Below are positions 7,145 to 42,600 of a stretch of 64,000 bases of DNA, piece by piece. A program made the position numbers and the translations under genes. This stretch comes from Bolinopsis microptera (Eukaryota; Ctenophora; Tentaculata; Lobata; Bolinopsidae). Under the pieces are notes generated by a model. The model was not told where the DNA came from. It saw only the letters and a list, made by a program, of their open reading frames with translations, and ran no database searches. The stretch's first letter is position 1. Each line of letters opens with the position of its first letter. The stretch is taken from the NCBI RefSeq assembly GCF_026151205.1, contig NC_087079.1:10344635-10408634 (forward strand), read 5' to 3'.

Positions 7145-7905
7145 ATGGGAAATCCCGCAAAATCTTGCCCGATCACAGCTTACACAACTCTACAAAATCT
7201 AATCTTTTTCAGAACCCTATCATACTGCTATCAAGCCTCAATTACGCAGCTGCAGAACATTCAGAACCGAGCATGCCGTCTGGTTTTTGGATTAAAGAAG
7301 AGAGACTCAGTCGAGGAGAAGCTCAAATCCCTTCATTGGGTCAAGGTGAAGGAGAGGATTGAGTTTAAGTTATGCTTACTGATTTTCAAAGCAGTCAATG
7401 GTGTTGCTCCTGCATATCTGTGTGATCTAGTAACATTTGTTAGTTCGAGTAGCAGAAGAACTTCCTCCTTACACCTACCCGTCGGATCTACAAGATCGCA
7501 CCCAAGAGCGTTTCAGACTGTTGCTCCGAAAATCTGGAACCAACTACCAATTGAAATTAAGACTTGTTCCGATGTTGATCTGTTCAAAACATTATTAAAA
7601 ACTCACCTGTTTAAGAAAAGTTATGGCATAAGCGATTAATTGACAATATAACTTTATGTTATTTGCTTAAACTGTTTAGGATGCAACCTAATGTCATGAT
7701 CTTTTTGAACTTATTAGCAATTAGACTGTTAGCTCGCTTCACAAGCATGTCATCTTCGTTCCAAAACTTTTTATGTCCTATGCATACACTCCTTGATAGT
7801 TATCTTGATCTAGTATCTTTGTTTCGCACAATAGAGCATAAGTTTTGTGGTTTATCCACTGGGCTTAGAGTTTGTGTTTAAGCTACCAAATTTTATTATT
7901 ATAAA
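7145..7905 (+). mobile_element. 5'-truncated CR1/Jockey-like LINE, RT C-terminal tail and 3' UTR
   Basis: The open frame 7145-7639 reads as the extreme C-terminus of a LINE reverse transcriptase: LQNIQNRACRLVFG, then LHWVKVKERIEFK, FKAVNGVAPAYLCDL and a WNQLPIEIK/LKTHLFKKSYG ending. This is the conserved tail beyond the thumb in CR1- and Jockey-type elements. All catalytic motifs are absent. The likely 3' UTR runs to about 7905. Nothing suggests activity. Confidence 0.8.
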
Positions 7906-14900: not shown

Positions 14901-17900
14901 AAAATAACAATTACTAATTTTAAATTTATAAGTAAAATTGTCAGTAACTTTATTTCGTGTCATATCTCACAGCGGCTTAGGTTGTGGTGAGTACCTAATG
15001 ACTTAATGAAAGCCTCACCATCTTATGAGAAGAAAAGATTCGGTATATAATATCGTCTCGATTACACCTGTCATAAAATATTTGTAGTGCAATTGTAATT
15101 AGTTTAAAACCAATTTTTATGAAGTAATGGCCTCGTATGGATATTGGAATCACGAGTGGTTGAAATTAATGTTCAAATTTTAGAGGAACAGAATGTTTCA
15201 CCTCGTCATTTTTCATCCTGAATTGCAGGGTTTCAAAAGGATTACCGATTATGGTATGTTGTGGCATGGTATGTGGTGAGTCCAGAGATAAATCCAGGGT
15301 GGTAAAATCCATTGTTCCAACTTTCTCGTTAAAGGTTGTGAATTGTGTTCGTGTATATAAACTGGAAGTTCTTAATACGGCCGCATTCCGACACTCTACG
15401 TAGAATCATGGATATAATACTTAATATTGGAGATTGCTTTCGTCGGATATGATGACGTACTAAATTGTTATGTCAGACGATAGATTAATTATGTGTCCGT
15501 CGAATAATTTTGAATGATGGATAGAAATACCAACAAATGCTAATATACCCTAGTTTATTGTACGTCAATCCGGTTAAAAAAAATACATATTTTAGCAGTT
15601 AAAGATTGTGTAGCCCTCCAGCCGATCTGCATTATAGTTCTTCCTACTATAATTATACACCTGTGTTAAATACTTGATAAATGAATATTCATTAACTTAA
15701 AACAAGAAATCTACCAAACTATAACCTTCAATAAAGCAATTAAAATGTCAGGGAGTCTGTGAAGGAGATGAAGTGGACTCAAACCTTTTGGTAAACTATA
15801 CCGTCTGCTACCTAGCTACATCTAGCACTTGTCATTACTTGATTAATCAATTAGTAATTACTTAATTGATTATCACTCACATTCATATGCGTTTTCAAAA
15901 TTTGTTTGCTGAGCTGAGTGTTCTTGATTGTACTCACACATTATCCCAAGTTCTCTACAACAGATCACATACAACCAGTTCGATATGTATATTGTACTTA
16001 CTTGATCGTTAGTTACATGCTATGTTACACAGTTTAAAACTAAAGTTAAACACTTCACATATATAATCACATTATTAGCCACGATAATTTGTGTACATTT
16101 AATTTTCTAAAATATGGTCCCAATTATTGGGGAATGTTCAATGTCCATGCTGAGAATATACTTAGTCAAAGTTCAGTTCAAAGAATTTAAGAAACGTTCA
16201 TGTTCCTTAAATGACTATATTAATTAATACTATAGCTGCACTGATTGATATATACATATTGTGTTTCTCATAATTATAGTTCTTCTAAAATTTGGGTTTG
16301 AGTCATATTGCCACATTGATTAATTACAATTATATTGAAATAATTAATAACTATTAGTGTCTTCGTGTTTTGCCCGGCTGATATTCTCTGTTCTAAATGT
16401 TTAACTCAATTTGAATTGGTTGTCTAAGGACATCGTATATATTATACAGGGCGAGTTGAAAATAGTGTGTAAAATGTAAATGGCTCTAATTTTTTTCATG
16501 AAGGAGCAAATTTTGAAAGGTGAATTGCTATCAGTTCATAAACGTTACAAATTTCATTCTTGCCCCTCATTTGATTCTAACTCATAATTTGGTTGATTTT
16601 TGGCAGTTTTCCAAAAAATCGTAAATTCGTCCTAATGGGGATCTCAAATCGCGTGCCCTGAAAATCGAGTCTAAAAAGCTATCTTCTCCTATACTACATT
16701 ATTTGAGCTATAACCCTGAAAATTTCAGGATATGTTTTAGAAATCATTTAAAGAAGAGATGAGCCTGATAAAATTTGAGATAGGCCTTTAAAAATTTTTC
16801 ATCAAAAAAACTCATCACGGCACGCAATCAAAAATCGCTCGCGCAATTATACAATTACCACACACGCGCTGACCTTTGACCGACAATAATTTCGGCTAGG
16901 AACGATATTTTTCCACGGGATCAAAAGCATTTGATTTATTAAAAAAATTATTAATTATTAAGTATTTTTATTGTACTATTATAATATTTATATATTCTCA
17001 TTACCTAAATATGCAAACATTTCATGGAAAATTTCATTTGTCAAAAAAATTAGAGTCATTTACATTTTACACACTATTTTCAACACACCCTGTATTATAC
17101 ATTTATCACATGCCTTCTCATGCGATATCAAAACTTTCGCCCACGAGGCTTGCCGAGTTAGCGAAAGTTTCGATATTTCCCGAGGCTTGCCGAGGGTTAT
17201 ATCGACATTTTCAATCACGAGGCTTGCCGAGTTTTGAAAATGTTGATATCGCATGAGAAGGCATGTGATTAATGTTTTATCACACTTTCTTTGGAGCCAA
17301 ATTTGGCCGGGAAAGCAGAATTTGATCAAACGTTAGTTATAAATCTCACCAAAGCAAAACTAGACATGTCGAACGTTTATAATGTCCAAGCTATATGTAT
17401 AGCTCTCGATGAGTTAGTATTTCAGATATCGAAGATACAATACGTAAAATTAGGATCTCACGTTTTCACATTTATGACACAGTGAATGCTGTACGACGCG
17501 CCCAATTTGCTTTCTTATACTGATACGTAGTGCATGTAATATTAAATATATTCACGCCTATGGGTCTCGTACTTATTGCAGTCTAGAATATTCCACCACA
17601 AGCGCGTCTTTGAATCATAAATTATATCCTAGATATCAATCAATGTGAGGTGATTCTTATACTTTATTTCTATTAGATATATTTTGAGTCATTAAAACTG
17701 AAGATGTATAATGTATAGAACATCTGTTTTAGTGTTGATTACATCCTAGTCCTTATCATGTAATACTAATCTGCGATAAGGTGATAGTATTTCCTGGTTG
17801 TTATATTTGAATTGGGCTGTGGCGCCATGATTGTCTATTCATAAGTCCACATTATACACTGCACACCCTAATTTACACCAACAATATTATCGTCCGTCTT

Positions 17901-20900
17901 GATTCTTGATTGTCTGTTATTTCAGAATGATTTAATCAATGCAACTTGTAATCGTTGACTTAGAATTTTATCAAGTATTCTGCTTAGTTCTTAGTCAGTA
18001 TTCATCTTTACTTGCCATTATTTGCCATTATCTGCTTCGAGCTAGAAATTATCTGAACTGGAAATTATCAGAACATTTGTAATATTCAAATGTATCTCTT
18101 CAACATTTTAGAACGCAGTAGTCCACCAGCCTATAACCACCCTGGTCATGGCCAGGTAGTTCACCCGTACTGTTACCAATATTGAATTGGTCTAATGAAT
18201 GGCAGCACATTAATCATCGGACCTGTTTGCCCCAGTGCCCAGACTAATTTATAACCAGATTAGCTGATTAAGTTACGTCATTCGTCCCTTGATATATTTA
18301 TATAAATAATATATTTTATAGGATGTTTTTATTGCACTCATTTGCACTAACTAAAATTCAGTTAAAACTAGTCCTGGGATAGAATTTCCGCTCTTTATTG
18401 TACAGAATCTACATATAAGTCTCTTTATCAGTCTGTTTATAGATCAGCCACGAATTTCGCAAGCTAATCTAGGCGAAACCGGTTTGGAAAAGCCAAGCAT
18501 AATTTCTGCACAATTTCTATATGGAATATGGCTCAAAGAAGGGATCAGAGGGGGTTAAAATTGAGGTCTGAAATGGCTGAAATCTGGCTTTGTTTTGTGT
18601 GTTTTCTTCGTTCGAATTAATCAAACATCGTCTAGTGTTTACTATTTTTTGTGAGGGTGACTGTAGTTTGTTCTGACACTTCCTTTTTAATTTCAAGTAA
18701 GCGATTAAGGAAATTAATTATCCTGATTGATTGTATCGCTGACAAGTACCAAAACTTTGTTAAACTTTCAAGTCTGCTTGTAAACTTTGATCTCGTTTTC
18801 AATAACCTTAAGTCACTTAAAGCTCGTACAAGCCAGGGAGTTTTTACTTTGTTTCATCATCCGAAGCCTAATTAAGCTTTGAACTATAAAGTGCAATAAA
18901 AAGGGAACAGCTTGAAAAAGTTTTACAACAAAAAATTTTATTTTGCTTGACGCATCTCAAACACAAGGAAATATTTTCAAAACCATTTATAAATATAAAT
19001 TTTTCCTTATCCTGGAAAGTTCATCTGATCATTGCATTAACGGTCATAGACTACTTCGGGTTGTTGATTTAAATCTTTATTTAAATCAGTACCTCACAGT
19101 AGTAGAACAGTTGTTGAGAGTGGGCTCCTTGTTCCTATGGGAATATCGGGCTCTCTCTGAGCAACTGATTGATATTTCATGCCCCCGGGTGAGAGCCAGT
19201 GCTCCCCATTGGGGCATGTAATATCAATTCTGCTTTCCTGCCAAATTTGGCTCGAAAGTGTGATAATATATTGTATTATATATTGTTGTTATTGATATTC
19301 CCTTCTGGATAGACACCAGACAGACCCACATTTTCAGTACTTAGAGGAACAAATCATATATCGTGTCTTGAGACTTATGTCTACATTATACATTGTACGT
19401 GACGTTAGAGTAAAATGCACACAGTGTACACAGTAGTAGTACACACTAAACATCAACTATCCGTAGTCACATCAATGATACTGAAATACTAATACCTCCT
19501 AGACGAGGCAATCTTTCAGTAATGTACGCGGTGGTCTTTCTCAAGCAAATAATCTAGCAAGCTGGACATCACGCAATCAAATACGATCAAATGATAAACT
19601 TTAAAGACACATGATATGCTGTGTTGGCTATAATTCATCATTTAAAATATGTTCACATACTGGTCACATACTGGTCACATACTGGTCACATACTGGCCAT
19701 TCAAATGGTACTCTCATACATATTTTAGTAAATTTTCACCACAAACATGGTTGCGTTACAAAAGCTGTACTGTTAAAATAATTAGTAAAATATAAGTAGA
19801 GTTAAACTAAGTAGAGTTAAACAAAGTAAAGTTTTTTTATTTGGCAGAAAGTTCATGCTGGTTTTATATTCACAAGCTTTCTGATATTACAATAATTGTA
19901 CGAGGTTAAGATTGGCTAATTTTACTGTTAAGTAAAGTTCAACATTAACAAGCAAGTTACCGCCTATTTTTCTGTCAGTCTGGATTGAAATGTAATAGCT
20001 CTAACTTCTTAACTGAAACTGTAAGTATGCTAATTGCTACAAAAAGCGCAACAAGTTCCAAGCTAGATATTTAAAGGGTTGGGCAAATTTTACTTAACGT
20101 AAGCACAGTTAAGCAGTACGGGATGAACCCCATTTTGCTGTGCAGTACATACATCTACATTGTGTTTATTATGGCCCACCTTGTAGCTAAATTTGCGCTA
20201 ACAAAATCTATGAATGTTTGCTAAATTTCATTATGTATACCGAAAGGTGAGGTTTATTAACGATTTGTTGTCCACTTGATGAGATCAATAGAGCCAAGGG
20301 AATCTGAAAATGTAAGGCATTACAAAGTAAGCGTGCGTTTTTGTGATCTAAATTCGATTCTGAGACCTAGATATATCACATATAACTTATCTTGTACACT
20401 TACACTGCAATAAACTCCACAAATCTACATGAACATTCCTGTCTGAAGGGTATCTTTTACTTTTTAACTAAGTTTTCTTCGTGTTATAAACTGATTTTTA
20501 AAAAGTTGGTAATAGTAGTACTATTATAAGTTATTTTTCTTACTCAGTTGATTGTATCAGTAATATGTTATTAAATACTAAAATAGCACAGTTCAATAAA
20601 TGGAAGATTCAGATGAATAATAAAAATAAAAATGACTTAGTAGATCCGTATAATAATATAATATTTGAGCTATTTTTAGTCATCCACTTTGTGTGTATCA
20701 GAGGAAGAGAAGTACATTGCAATTGTTCTAGACTATTGTTTGTTTATACACAATATTCATTGTGTATCATATTGTGTCATATTGATATTGAGCTCTCAAA
20801 ATAAACATCATTCCAGCAATATCTCATAACAAAACGCATTATCTCAGAACGAAGGTGGAGAAGATCTACCAGCCCTACCCAGCTATGAGGACGTCCAGAG

Positions 20901-33600: not shown

Positions 33601-36600
33601 GATAACAAAAGGCACTGACCCTGGCCCCTCCCCTCCACATTACTTTGTTTTTCCAGGGAGTGTCCAAATGATGCAACTGGCTGGAACTATGAAAACCATG
33701 ACAAGGCTTTACGAACAAGCTGGCCAAGTTGCTGCTGAAGCTGTCGAAAACATGAGGACTGTTTCTTCGCTGTGTATCGAGCGACTGTTCTTAAAGAAAT
33801 ACGCTGCCTCCCTTAAACAACCTTCCCAGTAAGTTTGGATAACTTAAATTCTATTTCATGTCAGTTCTGTATAATGTTACTTTTCAAAAAGAAGATATTT
33901 CATACATTCCGATTGCCAAATAATAAGAATTGCAAATCTCAGGAAGTTTAAGAAGCAAGCCCATTTGACAGGAATATCCATGGGGCTGGCTGAAGCGGTC
34001 ATATTTTTCACCTATGCTGCTGTATTTACGTATGGCAACTATCTCATGAATCTACCAGAGGGACACAGTGGTAAACTGACTTTTACTCAGCTCATGAAGT
34101 AAGCCTTATGTTCATAATTAGGTCTGTTCAATTAACATGCATGTATTTATTGTATTTCTGTTTTTTTTAATTAAATACTTTTCAAATTTTACAGTGATAT
34201 GATGTTGGGAGTATAAAGGTATAAGGTAGATAGAGAACAAAAAAATATATATGGGGAGCAAAGAGATAATTAGGCTAGACTGTTCTTTCACTATCCAATA
34301 AACATTTCCATAGATGCTTAGTGACCTCAGATTTGAAAAGACTAGTAGACACAATCTGTCACAATTCTGACTTAACTTAGGTAAAATTGATGACACAATA
34401 GACAGACTGTCGGCCAAATTGCAAGTGAACTGTCCTATTCAAGTATGAGTCTGATACACTTTAAACAAAATGCCGTGAATAATGGAAAATACTTCTTACA
34501 GGGTATTTTCTGGGATAGTCTTCTCAGCCATGACAATTGGTCAGACAATGTCATTGTTACCGGACTACGGAAAGGCGAAAGCAAGTGCTTTCAAGCTTTT
34601 CAAACTCATAAGAGAACCTCCCATAATCGACGCCTACACCGATAAAGGAAAGAAGGTGAGAAGTTTATTAGACTTTGGTTGAATCTGAAAAGTATGTATT
34701 CAGGTATTCAGGGGAACCTTCGAGATGTTCTAGTAGTTCTAGATGTTCTAGATGTTCTAGATGTTCTAGATGTTCTAGATGTTCTAGATGTTCTTTTAAC
34801 GGATTATGATGTAAACAATAAATTAGTCCATTGGAGAATTCAGAATGGAGATGCTCCCCTTACGAGGGGCTTTCAATAAATATTTGTGGCAAATTTATGG
34901 CATGCTTGCCAATGATATTAGAACGTAAAGTAACCCATCTTGGGATGTTTTAGGCTTAGCTTTTACTAAAATTGTGGCATAGCTTGCTCCTATTTGTGAC
35001 ACCTTCATAACAACTACTGTTACTTACTTGGGTTACTTGGGTTGGGATCCGAGCTAGAGTGCTACCAGGCCAAGAATGTCTTGCATCTCCACCGCCATGT
35101 AGTAGCGTGTCAGAGACACGTGCCACCGGCCCACTCCAGCATTGAGTTCCTGTTCTGTCCAGTGTACCCAGGTGTTGGTGGAGTGTCAGGGAATTCATTG
35201 AGGAAAGCATCAAGAGCGGGTTTGAAAGTGGTCAAGGTCAGGAGGGACTTGATGGCGGGAGGGACCACGTTGTACAGTGCAGAGGCTCTAGAGGCAAAGG
35301 AGTTGAACCTCAGGTTATTGACACTTGTGTACTTGGAGGACCCTAGTGGTCGTATACACGTAGTTCCGTATCGTGAGGTCTCGCGGAAGTTGATGTTCGT
35401 GCTGTTTGGAGCGAGATTGTTATAGATCTTCCAAACTAGGATGATAGTGTATCTCTCACGCCGCCTTTGAAGGGAGTACATAGACAGGCGACGGAGGCGT
35501 TCCCAGTAGTTGAGATTTCCAAGACCCTGGATTTTAGCAGTGAAGGATCGTTGAACTGCTTCGAGTTTAATAATTTCGCACTGCATGTGAGGAGACCACA
35601 GAGGACAGCAGTATTCAAGATGAGATCGTACGTAGGACTTGTACAGGAGCATCATGGTCGCTACATCCCTGGAGATGAAGGTGCGTAGCACCCAACTAGC
35701 CATGTTTCTGGCTTTGGCAGACTTCATCGCTATGTGAGTGCGCCAGTTGAGGTCTGGGTCGATATAGACACCCAGGTCCTTCACGTGGTCAGAGCCCTTA
35801 AGAGTCTCTCCAGATGGTAAGATGTAGGGCTGCTTCAAGTCCGGTAGTTTGCCGTGTTGTAGAAGCTGGAACTTTTCCTCGTTAAGCTCCATGTTGTTAG
35901 CATCAGCCCAATTCACAACCGAGAGAAGATCTTCTTGGAGAAGGATGCGATCGATATGGGAAGATATATCTTTGTGGAGCTTCGAGTCATCTGCAAACAC
36001 TGTAATAATTGTATACCAAAAATATACACTGAATCAATCTAAAATGTTCAGATATACAGCAGGGTGTCATAATTATTGGCGCGTAGACAATTTTGCGTAA
36101 AATTTTAGCTTACCCAAGCTTTTAGAAACGATCATTACTTGACTTCTGAGGGTCAGTTTCCTATGGAGTCTTGATCATCCGAGAGATAACCCTTCATACT
36201 ACAGTTCAGTTTAAAAACGAAGTCCGAAAGAAGTTAAATTACGTCGATAATCACGACGAAAGAGAAAAATTTGGATTATTGGACTTGAAGCCTTCGGCTG
36301 CTTCCCCTGAATTCCGGGATGAGTCCGCCTGATATTTTATTGCGTCAGTTAGAGGAGAAAGAGAGCTTTGATAAAATCTATAGTTTTCTATATGTTTCGC
36401 TATCGCCTGAAGAGCTGTGCACTTTAGTCTAAAGAATAATTTCAGAAAAATTTCACCGAAAAAAAAATACACAAAAATCCCTTATTACTCCTTCGTAAAT
36501 CTAACCAAGTATGGAATTGACCCTTTGAATAACGGCCTAAATTACGGGTTTTGAGGTACATCAACACAAAATTCTGAAATTAAGAAAAATTTCAGACGAT

Positions 36601-39600: not shown

Positions 39601-42600
39601 GGATATTTGGAACAGGTTTAGGGGTTTAAATAGTTAGTACCTGTCCCAAACCACCAGAAAAATCAAGTTTCGACCTCCCAACCCACTCAGGCCACTCCCA
39701 GGGGCCACGCCCATCCCAAAATATCTGAAAAGCCCATAAAACCCAGACTGAGAATCTTTACCACCGTATGCGATTTGTGTTCCGGGGTATTCTTTTTGGT
39801 ATGACTTACTATCACCACTCATTCAAGGAATATGTTAAATCAAATAATATTCATGCTAATTTTTTTCGAATGAAGGTTCATTATCGCATTTATTTGATAG
39901 TTTTGATTATCAGATCAAGCCAAACTTTATGGAATTGTATTTGGCCATTCAAATTACGTTCGATCTGAAAAAATGAGAGTTGTAGCTTCTCATTTGACCG
40001 AGATACGAGGCATAACGAGTTTATTAATTACGTGTGATCAGGTGATTGGATTACCTGTTCAAGTGATTAGGCGACCCCGTTAAATTGCAAGGGAACCCAA
40101 TTAAGGTGTCCTATCACATAATCACCCAATCAATTTTGTTAACGAGATAGGAGTGTTATAAAGTTGTTGTACTCTATAAGTGTATATTCACCTACAAGCA
40201 TAACTGCTTGGCGTGATGAGGTACATCTTTGATTGGTCGAAGGTCTTTCAACAACACAGCATCATCACTTTCATAGTAGTCCCCGGCTTATGACGGGTTC
40301 ATAGCGGTATTAAACATGTTTTTCTGGGCCCAAACATTCTACGCTCCTACTATGCTATTACTGGTCTCTTGACTAACTCCCAATCATCTGTCCATATGGT
40401 ATTGTTTCTTGACAAATAGATGGTATACGATGCCCTCAGGCTGATCTCAGCGATCTTCATGCAGGCCTTCTTCTTCTCTTTGTTGTTTACGTTCAGGTGG
40501 TTCATAAAGGTTGGGAGGCTATAGTTGTAAATGCCTCGAGCTCCCACTTCTACTGTCTGGAGCTTGCAAGCCCATCCATTGGCTTCTATCTCTTCTGTCA
40601 GCTGCTGATATCTCTTCATCTTTCGCTTCTCTTGATCAGCAAAGTTCTGCTCATTTCCACAAGTCAGCTCCATTAGATAAACCTTCTTTGCTTTATCTGA
40701 ATAGATCACTACATCAGGTCTTAGTGGTGTAGCTGCAATGTGCTGCGGGAAGTTCCTCTGTCTCTCATCCTCATCAAATATTATCTTCCAGTCGTTGGCA
40801 TCTGAAAAGAAATATCTTTGGGTCTTATGATGAGTTGGGTCAGCTAAGGTAACCTTCTCGCGCTTATTGCCTGCCTTGTGAAAGACCGACGGTGCCCTCT
40901 TCGATTCCTTGGCGATGTCGGAATTAAACTCTTCAATCTGTGATGAAACGGTCTTCATAATTTCACGTAGGACCTGATCATGGCGCCAGTTGAAACGTCC
41001 CTGTCTTAGTGCAACCTTGCAGAACGTCAGGATATGATTGAGTGTCCCTTGTTTGCTGCAGAGTTTACAGTTTCCTGAAACGGCTTTATTCCAAAGCTTT
41101 AGGTTGCTAGGTGTTGACGCAGTGTCATGAATAGCATTGACATGAAACTTTAACAGTTCCGGACTAAGTTGATAGATCAAGTTATTCCACGTGGTGTCAA
41201 ATGTCATTGTATTTTCCCATGTGAGAAAGAGGTTTTGCCGCTTTTTGTCAAAAAGTGAACAAATAAGTGTCTCTTCATCAAAGGTCCTCACCATGTTGGT
41301 AAGCAGTTTCCTCTCTGATGTGTCCTCATATCTTGTCCCATACCCGAGGCCAGTTGTACCAACTGCAGGTTTTCCAACTAACTCTTGGAAGTAAAGTTGG
41401 CGCTGACGGTCTTTCAGCTCTTTGGGATAAGACCACATCTTCTGTGTGTCTGCAATAGCCTTATGGTTACAGTACACTTTTTTGATGTAGGGGTCACTTG
41501 AGTTACAAAGTTGGTGTCCCTTAATAAGTTGGATGACTTTGTACTCAGTGCAGATGTTTTTCAGCTGCAATCCTTTCTGGTCTCTACTCCTGTAGAGGAC
41601 GGTGGTGGTACAAGGATGCGCAATCCCTAGCCACTTCTTAAGGTATCTGTTACACAGTGCCTCAAGCTCTCTCACAAATGTGATGGGTAGGTTATAAACA
41701 GTAAACCCCCATGACATCTTACTAATGATGAGGTGGTTATACACCCACGCCTTCATTGGACCGGTGATTTCATCAGTAGACGTTGTTTCCAAAAGGTCCT
41801 CTAACTTCTTCTTGATCATGGACCGAATTTCCTTTACCTCAAGATCTACATACATGTACATTCCTAGGAACTTCATTGGTGCTTGGATAATGGACGGCAC
41901 CTGTTGTTCGCTTAGTAAAAACTCTGCATCATAAAATGCTTGATAACTTCGTCATTTCAAATCCGTTTGGCCTCAATTTTTTAGATCAGATGCACCAATT
42001 AACTATCTACAGTAATCTGAAATAAATGGGCGTCTAGCATGTCCGGAAAGAACAATATAGGTGATTTAATATTATATGCATATGGACGTAATAGTTACAG
42101 CATGCCATCTGCAAATTTACAGGTCCATAATATGAAACACGGTGGTGGTATAAACTATAAAACACAACGTATGTAACGTTACTTTTGCCCCACCCCCCCC
42201 CCCCCCCCCCCTGTAACTTTTCTGGGTTAGGCGTGGCCCCTGGGAGCGGCCTGAGTGGGTCAAGATGTTGAAACTCGGTTTTTCTGATGGTTTGGGTCAG
42301 GTACTACCCATTTTTACATAAAAACATGTTCCAAATACCCTGGAACATAAATCCCCTACTGGGGTAAAGATTTTCAATCTTGATTTTACCTGGATTTCAG
42401 CTATTTTGGGATGGGCGTGGCCCCTGGGAGTGGCCTGAGTAGGTTGGGAGGTCAAAACTTGATTTTTCTGATGGTTTGGGACAGGTACTAACTATTTAAA
42501 ACCCTAAACTTGTTCCAAATACCCCGGAACATAAATCCCCTACAGGGTTAAGATTTTCGATCTTTATTTTACCTGGATTTTAGCTATTTTGGGATGGGCG

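What the first reader, a model, noticed from the sequence alone, without database searches (positions are those of the whole stretch)
17107..17267. A perfect DNA/RNA cloverleaf: 24-bp stem plus three hairpins with the same loop
The 161-nt segment folds with no unpaired base at the four-way junction. Each of the three arms has a different stem but presents the identical loop GAGGCTTGCCGA. Different stems around a conserved loop suggest selection on the displayed loop, or construction by amplification of the loop. It sits 14 bp from a mariner-like MITE and 9 bp from an element starting TTATCACACTTTC.
Basis: partly seen in the sequence, partly recalled or inferred. Interest (0 to 1): 0.85.

Follow-up and report, generated by a model that had tools for sequence, protein, structure and literature searches.

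The report
Cloverleaf end of a recombinase transposon
The folded segment is the left tip of a mobile DNA element that appears to be moved by a tyrosine recombinase, and a second, distantly related element in the same genome has the same cloverleaf layout with different stems, so the shape itself may be part of how these elements jump.

Summary
The cloverleaf is real (DNA fold z -11.5). It is the left terminus of a 2,171-bp mobile element (17096-19266). The genome has 66 exact right ends and 133 cap pairs. Most listed cloverleaves are identical, while bodies diverge. Two complete long copies carry a tyrosine-recombinase gene matching Pfam DUF3504 (Crypton type). Ends join head to tail, no target duplication was seen at the sites examined, and targets show inverted half-sites (ATA...TAT). 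The stretch after the cloverleaf is the reverse complement of left end plus right end, the logic of the internal complementary region of DIRS retrotransposons. The cloverleaf's outer stem is half of that pairing; the neighbouring "element starting TTATCACACTTTC" is the other half. A second family, with a recombinase about 40% identical, has different stems, near-identical caps and the same layout, and its internal region foretold the last 8-9 bases of its right end. Most likely this is a folded recombination site for a circular, possibly single-stranded, intermediate. Element, layout and second family are shown; circle, single-strand step and cap-binding protein are inferred. The searches listed found no such structure described for Cryptons.

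The parts
17096..19266 (+). whole non-autonomous element (2,171 bp), left end TATACATTTATCACATG, right end GAAAGTGTGATAA
   Evidence: ends fixed by aligned copies with unrelated flanks and by head-to-tail junctions
17096..17102 (+). TATACAT, probable crossover spacer at the left end; lies between the two inverted arms in the joined-end junction
   Evidence: no variable column here in 36 copies; joined junction seen in tandem copies
17103..17110 (+). TTATCACA, left recombinase-type arm (inverted at the right end)
   Evidence: sequence; right end TGTGATAA
17107..17267 (+). cloverleaf, 161 nt
17107..17130 (+). outer stem, left strand (24 bp)
17131..17170 (+). arm 1; cap CGAGGCTTGCCGAG at 17144-17157
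17171..17204 (+). arm 2; cap at 17181-17194
17205..17243 (+). arm 3; cap at 17218-17231
17244..17276 (+). internal complementary region, left half: reverse complement of the left end; contains the right strand of the outer stem (17244-17267)
   Evidence: last 13 bases of the right end match exactly, one occurrence in the element
17329..19214 (+). body, divergent between copies; several other copies carry 2-4 tandem units of about 745 bp here
19215..19266 (+). right end, ...GAAAGTGTGATAA

Best explanation
The segment is the left terminus of a Crypton-type transposon (tyrosine recombinase, YR), here a non-autonomous copy. When the ends join they form TGTGATAA-TATACAT-TTATCACA: two inverted arms around a 7-bp spacer, the usual shape of a YR site. 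Directly after the cloverleaf the element carries the reverse complement of this joined junction (internal complementary region, ICR). On a single strand the left end can pair with the left half of the ICR and the right end with the right half. The outer stem of the cloverleaf is the first of these two duplexes, and the three capped arms close it. I propose that the folded strand is a recombination site or a splint that holds the two ends together, that a circular intermediate is made, and that the YR inserts it at ATA-N8-TAT targets without duplication. The three caps are proposed docking sites for the YR or a partner protein. Shown: ends, head-to-tail junctions, absence of target duplication at the sites examined, target half-sites, a YR gene in complete copies, the ICR, and a second family with the same layout. 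Inferred: circle, single-strand step, cap binding.
For: Two complete copies (6,481 bp, and 10,188 bp with a nested copy) have these ends and a YR gene; their first 180 bp equal the window's, 0 differences. DUF3504 33.2 bits, cut-off 29.7; 51.8 bits in a relative. Of four loci with a YR of this family, two lie between both ends, one has a right end beside it, one has none in the DNA held. Targets: left -4..-1 = A 37, T 41, A 42, T 35 of 43; right T 31 and A 31 of 32 (both in 30), then T at +8 in 32 of 32, A 25 and T 23 of 32 (a few flanks are other copies of the element). Head-to-tail junctions without extra bases, including one identical 2,947-bp pair. ICR in 28 of 28 distinct full readings, some overlapping. 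No variable column in the first 180 bp of 36 copies; 20-bp bins of the body have mean identity 0.61-0.96. Family 2: same layout; the right end foretold from its ICR was then found.
Against: No circle or single strand was observed. The YR reading is split over two frames in both complete copies, so neither is shown to be active. The H of the HxxR box reads T in both families (by eye). Target half-sites are 8 bases apart, those of the joined ends 9. For family 2 the predicted minimum (-53.2) is another fold; the strict cloverleaf scores -47.3. ICR and right-end variants within family 1 are not compensated. Two of four family-2-like YR loci have no exact cap pair or internal-region 16-mer nearby. 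The foretold family-2 end, searched as an exact 16-mer, gave 34 matches, none shown to be a right end. The 36 copies came from loci found by hits identical to the query; in the wider pattern search 91 of the 100 listed cap pairs have the exact window spacer (counted by eye).
Confidence: 0.66

Rival explanations
1. Non-autonomous Helitron2/Helentron (HINE): rolling-circle element with asymmetric inverted repeats, central tandem repeats and no target duplication.
For: Asymmetric inverted ends, mostly T|T insertion, tandem central units; Helitron_like_N proteins are present in the genome, 41 matches; the layout resembles that in PMC4067079, PMC5148889 and PMC7492417 (passages).
Against: None of the Helitron-protein places lies within 30 kb of a listed cloverleaf or right end (by eye; the lists are cut; nearest about 32 kb on C6). 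The complete copies carry a YR; in L060 none of six other frames of 60-92 aa matches a Pfam family at E below 0.1. Target half-sites are inverted at a fixed spacing.
Confidence: 0.06
2. Non-autonomous derivative of a DIRS retrotransposon: the ICR is inherited from, and used in, an RNA-to-DNA cycle with reverse transcriptase supplied in trans.
For: ICR, no target duplication and short identity at the junction are the DIRS scheme (PMC3266345 passages).
Against: No reverse-transcriptase frame seen in L060; the YR matches the Crypton-derived DUF3504; ends have only 8-bp inverted arms. Whether a DIRS element with these ends exists in the genome was not searched.
Confidence: 0.13
3. The caps work as three double-stranded protein-binding sites at 37-bp spacing; the fold is a by-product of inverted duplication of end sequences, perhaps kept perfect by template switching within hairpins.
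For: Regular 37-bp spacing; one copy, L054, shows a switch to the opposite strand within the cloverleaf.
Against: All 4 differing pairs between arms 1 and 3 are compensated (hairpin-templated copying could also do this); family 2 keeps the four-way layout with other stems (hand-built fold).
Confidence: 0.12
4. The fold acts as a transcribed RNA.
For: RNA fold -86.6 kcal/mol, z -13.2.
Against: No Rfam match over the gathering score; position at the recombining end; both strands fold almost equally well as DNA. Expression not testable.
Confidence: 0.03

Closest known systems
Crypton (CryptonA), DUF3504-type tyrosine-recombinase DNA transposons
   Same: YR as the only recognised protein, no target duplication seen, non-autonomous copies outnumber coding ones (PMC3212892 passages)
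   Different: The paper reports no terminal repeats in animal Cryptons; here there are inverted arms, an ICR and a three-capped cloverleaf
DIRS1-like retrotransposons
   Same: Internal complementary region equal to the reverse complement of joined ends; a motif shared by both ends and both ICR halves; no target duplication (PMC3266345 passages)
   Different: No reverse transcriptase seen, no long inverted terminal repeats; the ICR lies about 150 bp from the left end; a cloverleaf closes the pairing
Integron attC sites
   Same: A tyrosine recombinase acting on a folded single strand (PMC3053210 passages)
   Different: Bacterial; a resemblance of the proposed mechanism only
Helentron/HINE and Helitron2
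   Same: Asymmetric inverted repeats, T-rich target, central tandem repeats (PMC4067079, PMC5148889, PMC7492417 passages)
   Different: Different protein, different end layout

Membership tests
Crypton | tyrosine recombinase encoded between the ends | tested here: met
   L060 and C3:3708823-3719010; reading split over two frames
Crypton | catalytic R-H-R-Y | tested here: inconclusive
   both R and Y present; H of HxxR reads T in families 1 and 2 (read by eye)
Crypton | no reverse transcriptase | tested here: met
   in L060 no frame outside the YR exceeds 92 aa and six frames of 60-92 aa have no Pfam match below E 0.1; in the C3 copy the longest other frame is 103 aa, not scanned
Crypton | no target-site duplication | tested here: met
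   flanks at the L010/L046 locus, from two near-identical copies in a rearranged locus, rejoin exactly to the window sequence at 17738-17790; flanks of L032 and L038 lie in phase in tandem repeats (by eye)
Crypton | phylogenetic grouping with Crypton YR | not tested
   only Pfam DUF3504 and Phage_integrase scores; for family 2 both are below cut-off
DIRS | internal complementary region | tested here: met
   family 2
DIRS | reverse transcriptase/RNase H | tested here: not met
   none seen in L060
DIRS | long inverted terminal repeats (66-316 bp in PMC3266345) | tested here: not met
   8-bp inverted arms at the ends
Helentron/Helitron | Rep/helicase in the autonomous partner | tested here: not met

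The most novel reading that the evidence does not exclude
A DNA-only tyrosine-recombinase transposon lineage uses a DIRS-like internal complementary region with a conserved three-capped four-way junction as a folded single-stranded recombination site. If so, the DIRS circularisation device may be older than its link with reverse transcription, and Cryptons of this kind would be living intermediates.
Probability: 0.35. Interest if true: 0.9.

Novelty: new variant of a known kind. Interest (0 to 1): 0.76.

Why it matters
Crypton movement through a circle was proposed by analogy and their boundaries are hard to define (PMC3212892, passages). Two families here give exact ends, a junction and a conserved folded structure, and one gives a target site, so the mechanism can be tested directly. 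A Crypton with a DIRS-like internal complementary region also bears on the proposal (Poulter and Butler, as reported in PMC6681497, passages) that tyrosine-recombinase retrotransposons arose from a Crypton plus a reverse transcriptase.

Tried and rejected
Helentron/HINE was my working idea from the ends and tandem units and was dropped when the complete copies proved to carry a YR. Tc1/mariner-like TA duplication: the ends are not mirror images next to the target, and the target logo has inverted half-sites 8 bases apart. Flip-flop of the cloverleaf as in parvovirus ends (recalled): the 40 scored copies have one orientation. Known RNA: nothing over the Rfam gathering score. Viral contigs: 0 matches to the exact cap pair. 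Compensatory change within family 2: none. L065, a related YR, shows no family ends in the 6.5 kb held. More cap families: of 86 matches to a looser cap pattern, all but one (C2:7379908) look like family 2 (by eye). A PDB sequence search with the N-terminal YR piece gave 0. Literature: searches; of eight papers passages only were seen. No ICR or cloverleaf in a Crypton was seen in them; most subscription papers are not held.

Full report
Observation. Both strands fold. The shared loop is part of a 14-nt cap CGAGGCTTGCCGAG, three copies 37 bp apart. From base pairing alone the cap can close as C-G, two G.A mismatches, G-C, G-C, C-G around TT. That such tandem G.A pairs and CTTG turns are stable is recalled, not tested.

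Copies. 40 of 40 scored copies of the 161 bp are identical (88 first-look candidates, 40 scored). With 235 bp, 37 of 40 scored copies share the top score and three score slightly lower (145 candidates). A whole-genome count gives 133 cap pairs, 0 in the reversed control; of the 100 listed, 91 have the exact window spacer (by eye). The right end's last 20 bases occur 66 times, control 0. In 36 copies, taken from loci found by hits identical to the query, no column varies in the first 180 bp and 6 vary in the next 60; 20-bp bins of the body have mean identity 0.61-0.96. The right end is also conserved: mean identity 0.95-0.996 per 20-bp bin over the last 100 bp of 28 distinct elements.

Anatomy. 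The element starts TATACATTTATCACATG and ends GAAAGTGTGATAA. In the window it spans 17096-19266. Several copies carry 2-4 tandem units of about 745 bp; some carry other inserts. Head-to-tail copies join the right end directly to TATACATTTATC; one such pair is identical over 2,947 bp. The joined junction reads TGTGATAA-TATACAT-TTATCACA. Across 43 left and 32 right flanks the target shows ATA(T) before the element and T, A at +1, +2 (31 and 31 of 32, both in 30), then T at +8 in 32 of 32, A 25 and T 23 of 32. A few of these flanks are other copies of the element. At the L010/L046 locus the two flanks, which belong to two near-identical copies in a rearranged locus, rejoin exactly to the window sequence at 17738-17790, so nothing is duplicated or lost apart from a shared TA.

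Internal complementary region. Directly after the cloverleaf, 17244-17328 is the reverse complement of the left end followed by that of the right end. It is present in 28 of 28 distinct full readings, some of which overlap. The outer stem of the cloverleaf is the left half of this pairing. In DIRS1-like retrotransposons a region of the same logic is proposed to bring the ends together for circle formation (PMC3266345, passages).

The protein. The copy at C5:12916720-12923200 (L060) has both ends, the cloverleaf, and a gene on the opposite strand whose second piece matches DUF3504 over the cut-off and Phage_integrase weakly. The copy at C3:3708823-3719010 matches it at about 97-99% in its main aligned blocks and holds the same gene plus a nested copy. 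In both, the reading is split over two frames. Both have the window's first 180 bp without a difference, although L060's body is about 80-85% identical to the window's over the aligned first 2 kb. Six other frames of 60-92 aa in L060 match no Pfam family below E 0.1. Kojima and Jurka derive DUF3504 from the Crypton recombinase and report non-autonomous Cryptons, but no terminal repeats in animal ones (PMC3212892, passages). A protein search gives 10 matches. Of four loci of this family, two lie between both ends, C10:11624657-11626436 has a right end within 0.3-2 kb, and C1:15150274 has no end in the DNA held.

Second family. Two further loci, C51 and C7, are duplicates of one region with a recombinase about 40% identical; its Pfam scores are below cut-off. 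They carry a different cloverleaf: other stems, caps CGAGGCGCAGCCGAG or close variants, and again no unpaired base at the four-way junction in a hand-built fold. It is a dispersed family: 40 of 145 candidates scored, and 86 matches to a looser cap pattern, control 0. Its left end is TATACGCTAATC. From its internal region I foretold a right end like ...GGCGTGGAGTTA. An exact 16-mer search gave 34 matches, mostly the internal regions themselves and none shown to be a right end. Aligning two complete copies with different right flanks then showed right ends ...GTGGAGTTA (L090) and ...TTGGAGTTA (L089), that is, the last nine and eight bases foretold. L081 shows the head-to-tail junction ...GTGGAGTTA|TATACGC. 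A second, independent recombinase locus, C1:12786820, lies 0.6 kb from a family-2 internal region, by position only. Two others on C6 have no exact cap pair or internal 16-mer listed nearby.

Covariation. Arms 1 and 3 of the window cloverleaf are related (83% over 35 bp) and differ at 4 of 10 stem pairs, all four on both sides. Between families the stems differ and the caps stay. Within families there is no compensatory change: 0 of 73 pairs in family 2, whose pairing of 97.9% equals the shuffle mean (slid controls 22-39%). I read this as decay of single insertions. Against the fold, the predicted minimum for family 2 is another structure, -53.2 against -47.3 for the cloverleaf.

Reading. Shown: a transposon terminus, a recombinase in complete copies, an internal complementary region, and a layout kept in two families. 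Inferred: a circular, possibly single-stranded intermediate whose joined ends are held double-stranded by the internal region, with the three caps as a docking platform. Integron integrases give a precedent for a tyrosine recombinase that uses a folded strand (PMC3053210, passages).

Noticed in passing
L054:356-640: A cloverleaf in which the sequence switches inside the arm-3 cap to the opposite strand, giving an inverted partial copy, as expected from template switching in a hairpin.
   Followed up: partly
L009 (C8:30000-39999): Three left ends of the family about 32-39 kb from a contig start, two of them behind the same GCGTGATATT repeat, spaced about 3.2-3.4 kb.
   Followed up: no
L044 (overlaps L011): An element with two left ends 462 bp apart and one right end, like the multiple termini reported for Fusarium Helitrons (PMC5148889, passages).
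   Followed up: no
whole genome: 41 matches to Helitron_like_N, many in open frames of over 1,000 aa, so intact-looking Helitrons are present too.
   Followed up: no
window 7145-7639, 35110-36000, 40350-41900: Open frames that look like pieces of non-LTR reverse transcriptases (by eye, not searched).
   Followed up: no
L059 (C11:16220401-16227838): A 7,438-bp copy with about 5.2 kb of unmatched inner sequence and no open frame of 150 aa or more; origin of the insert unknown.
   Followed up: no
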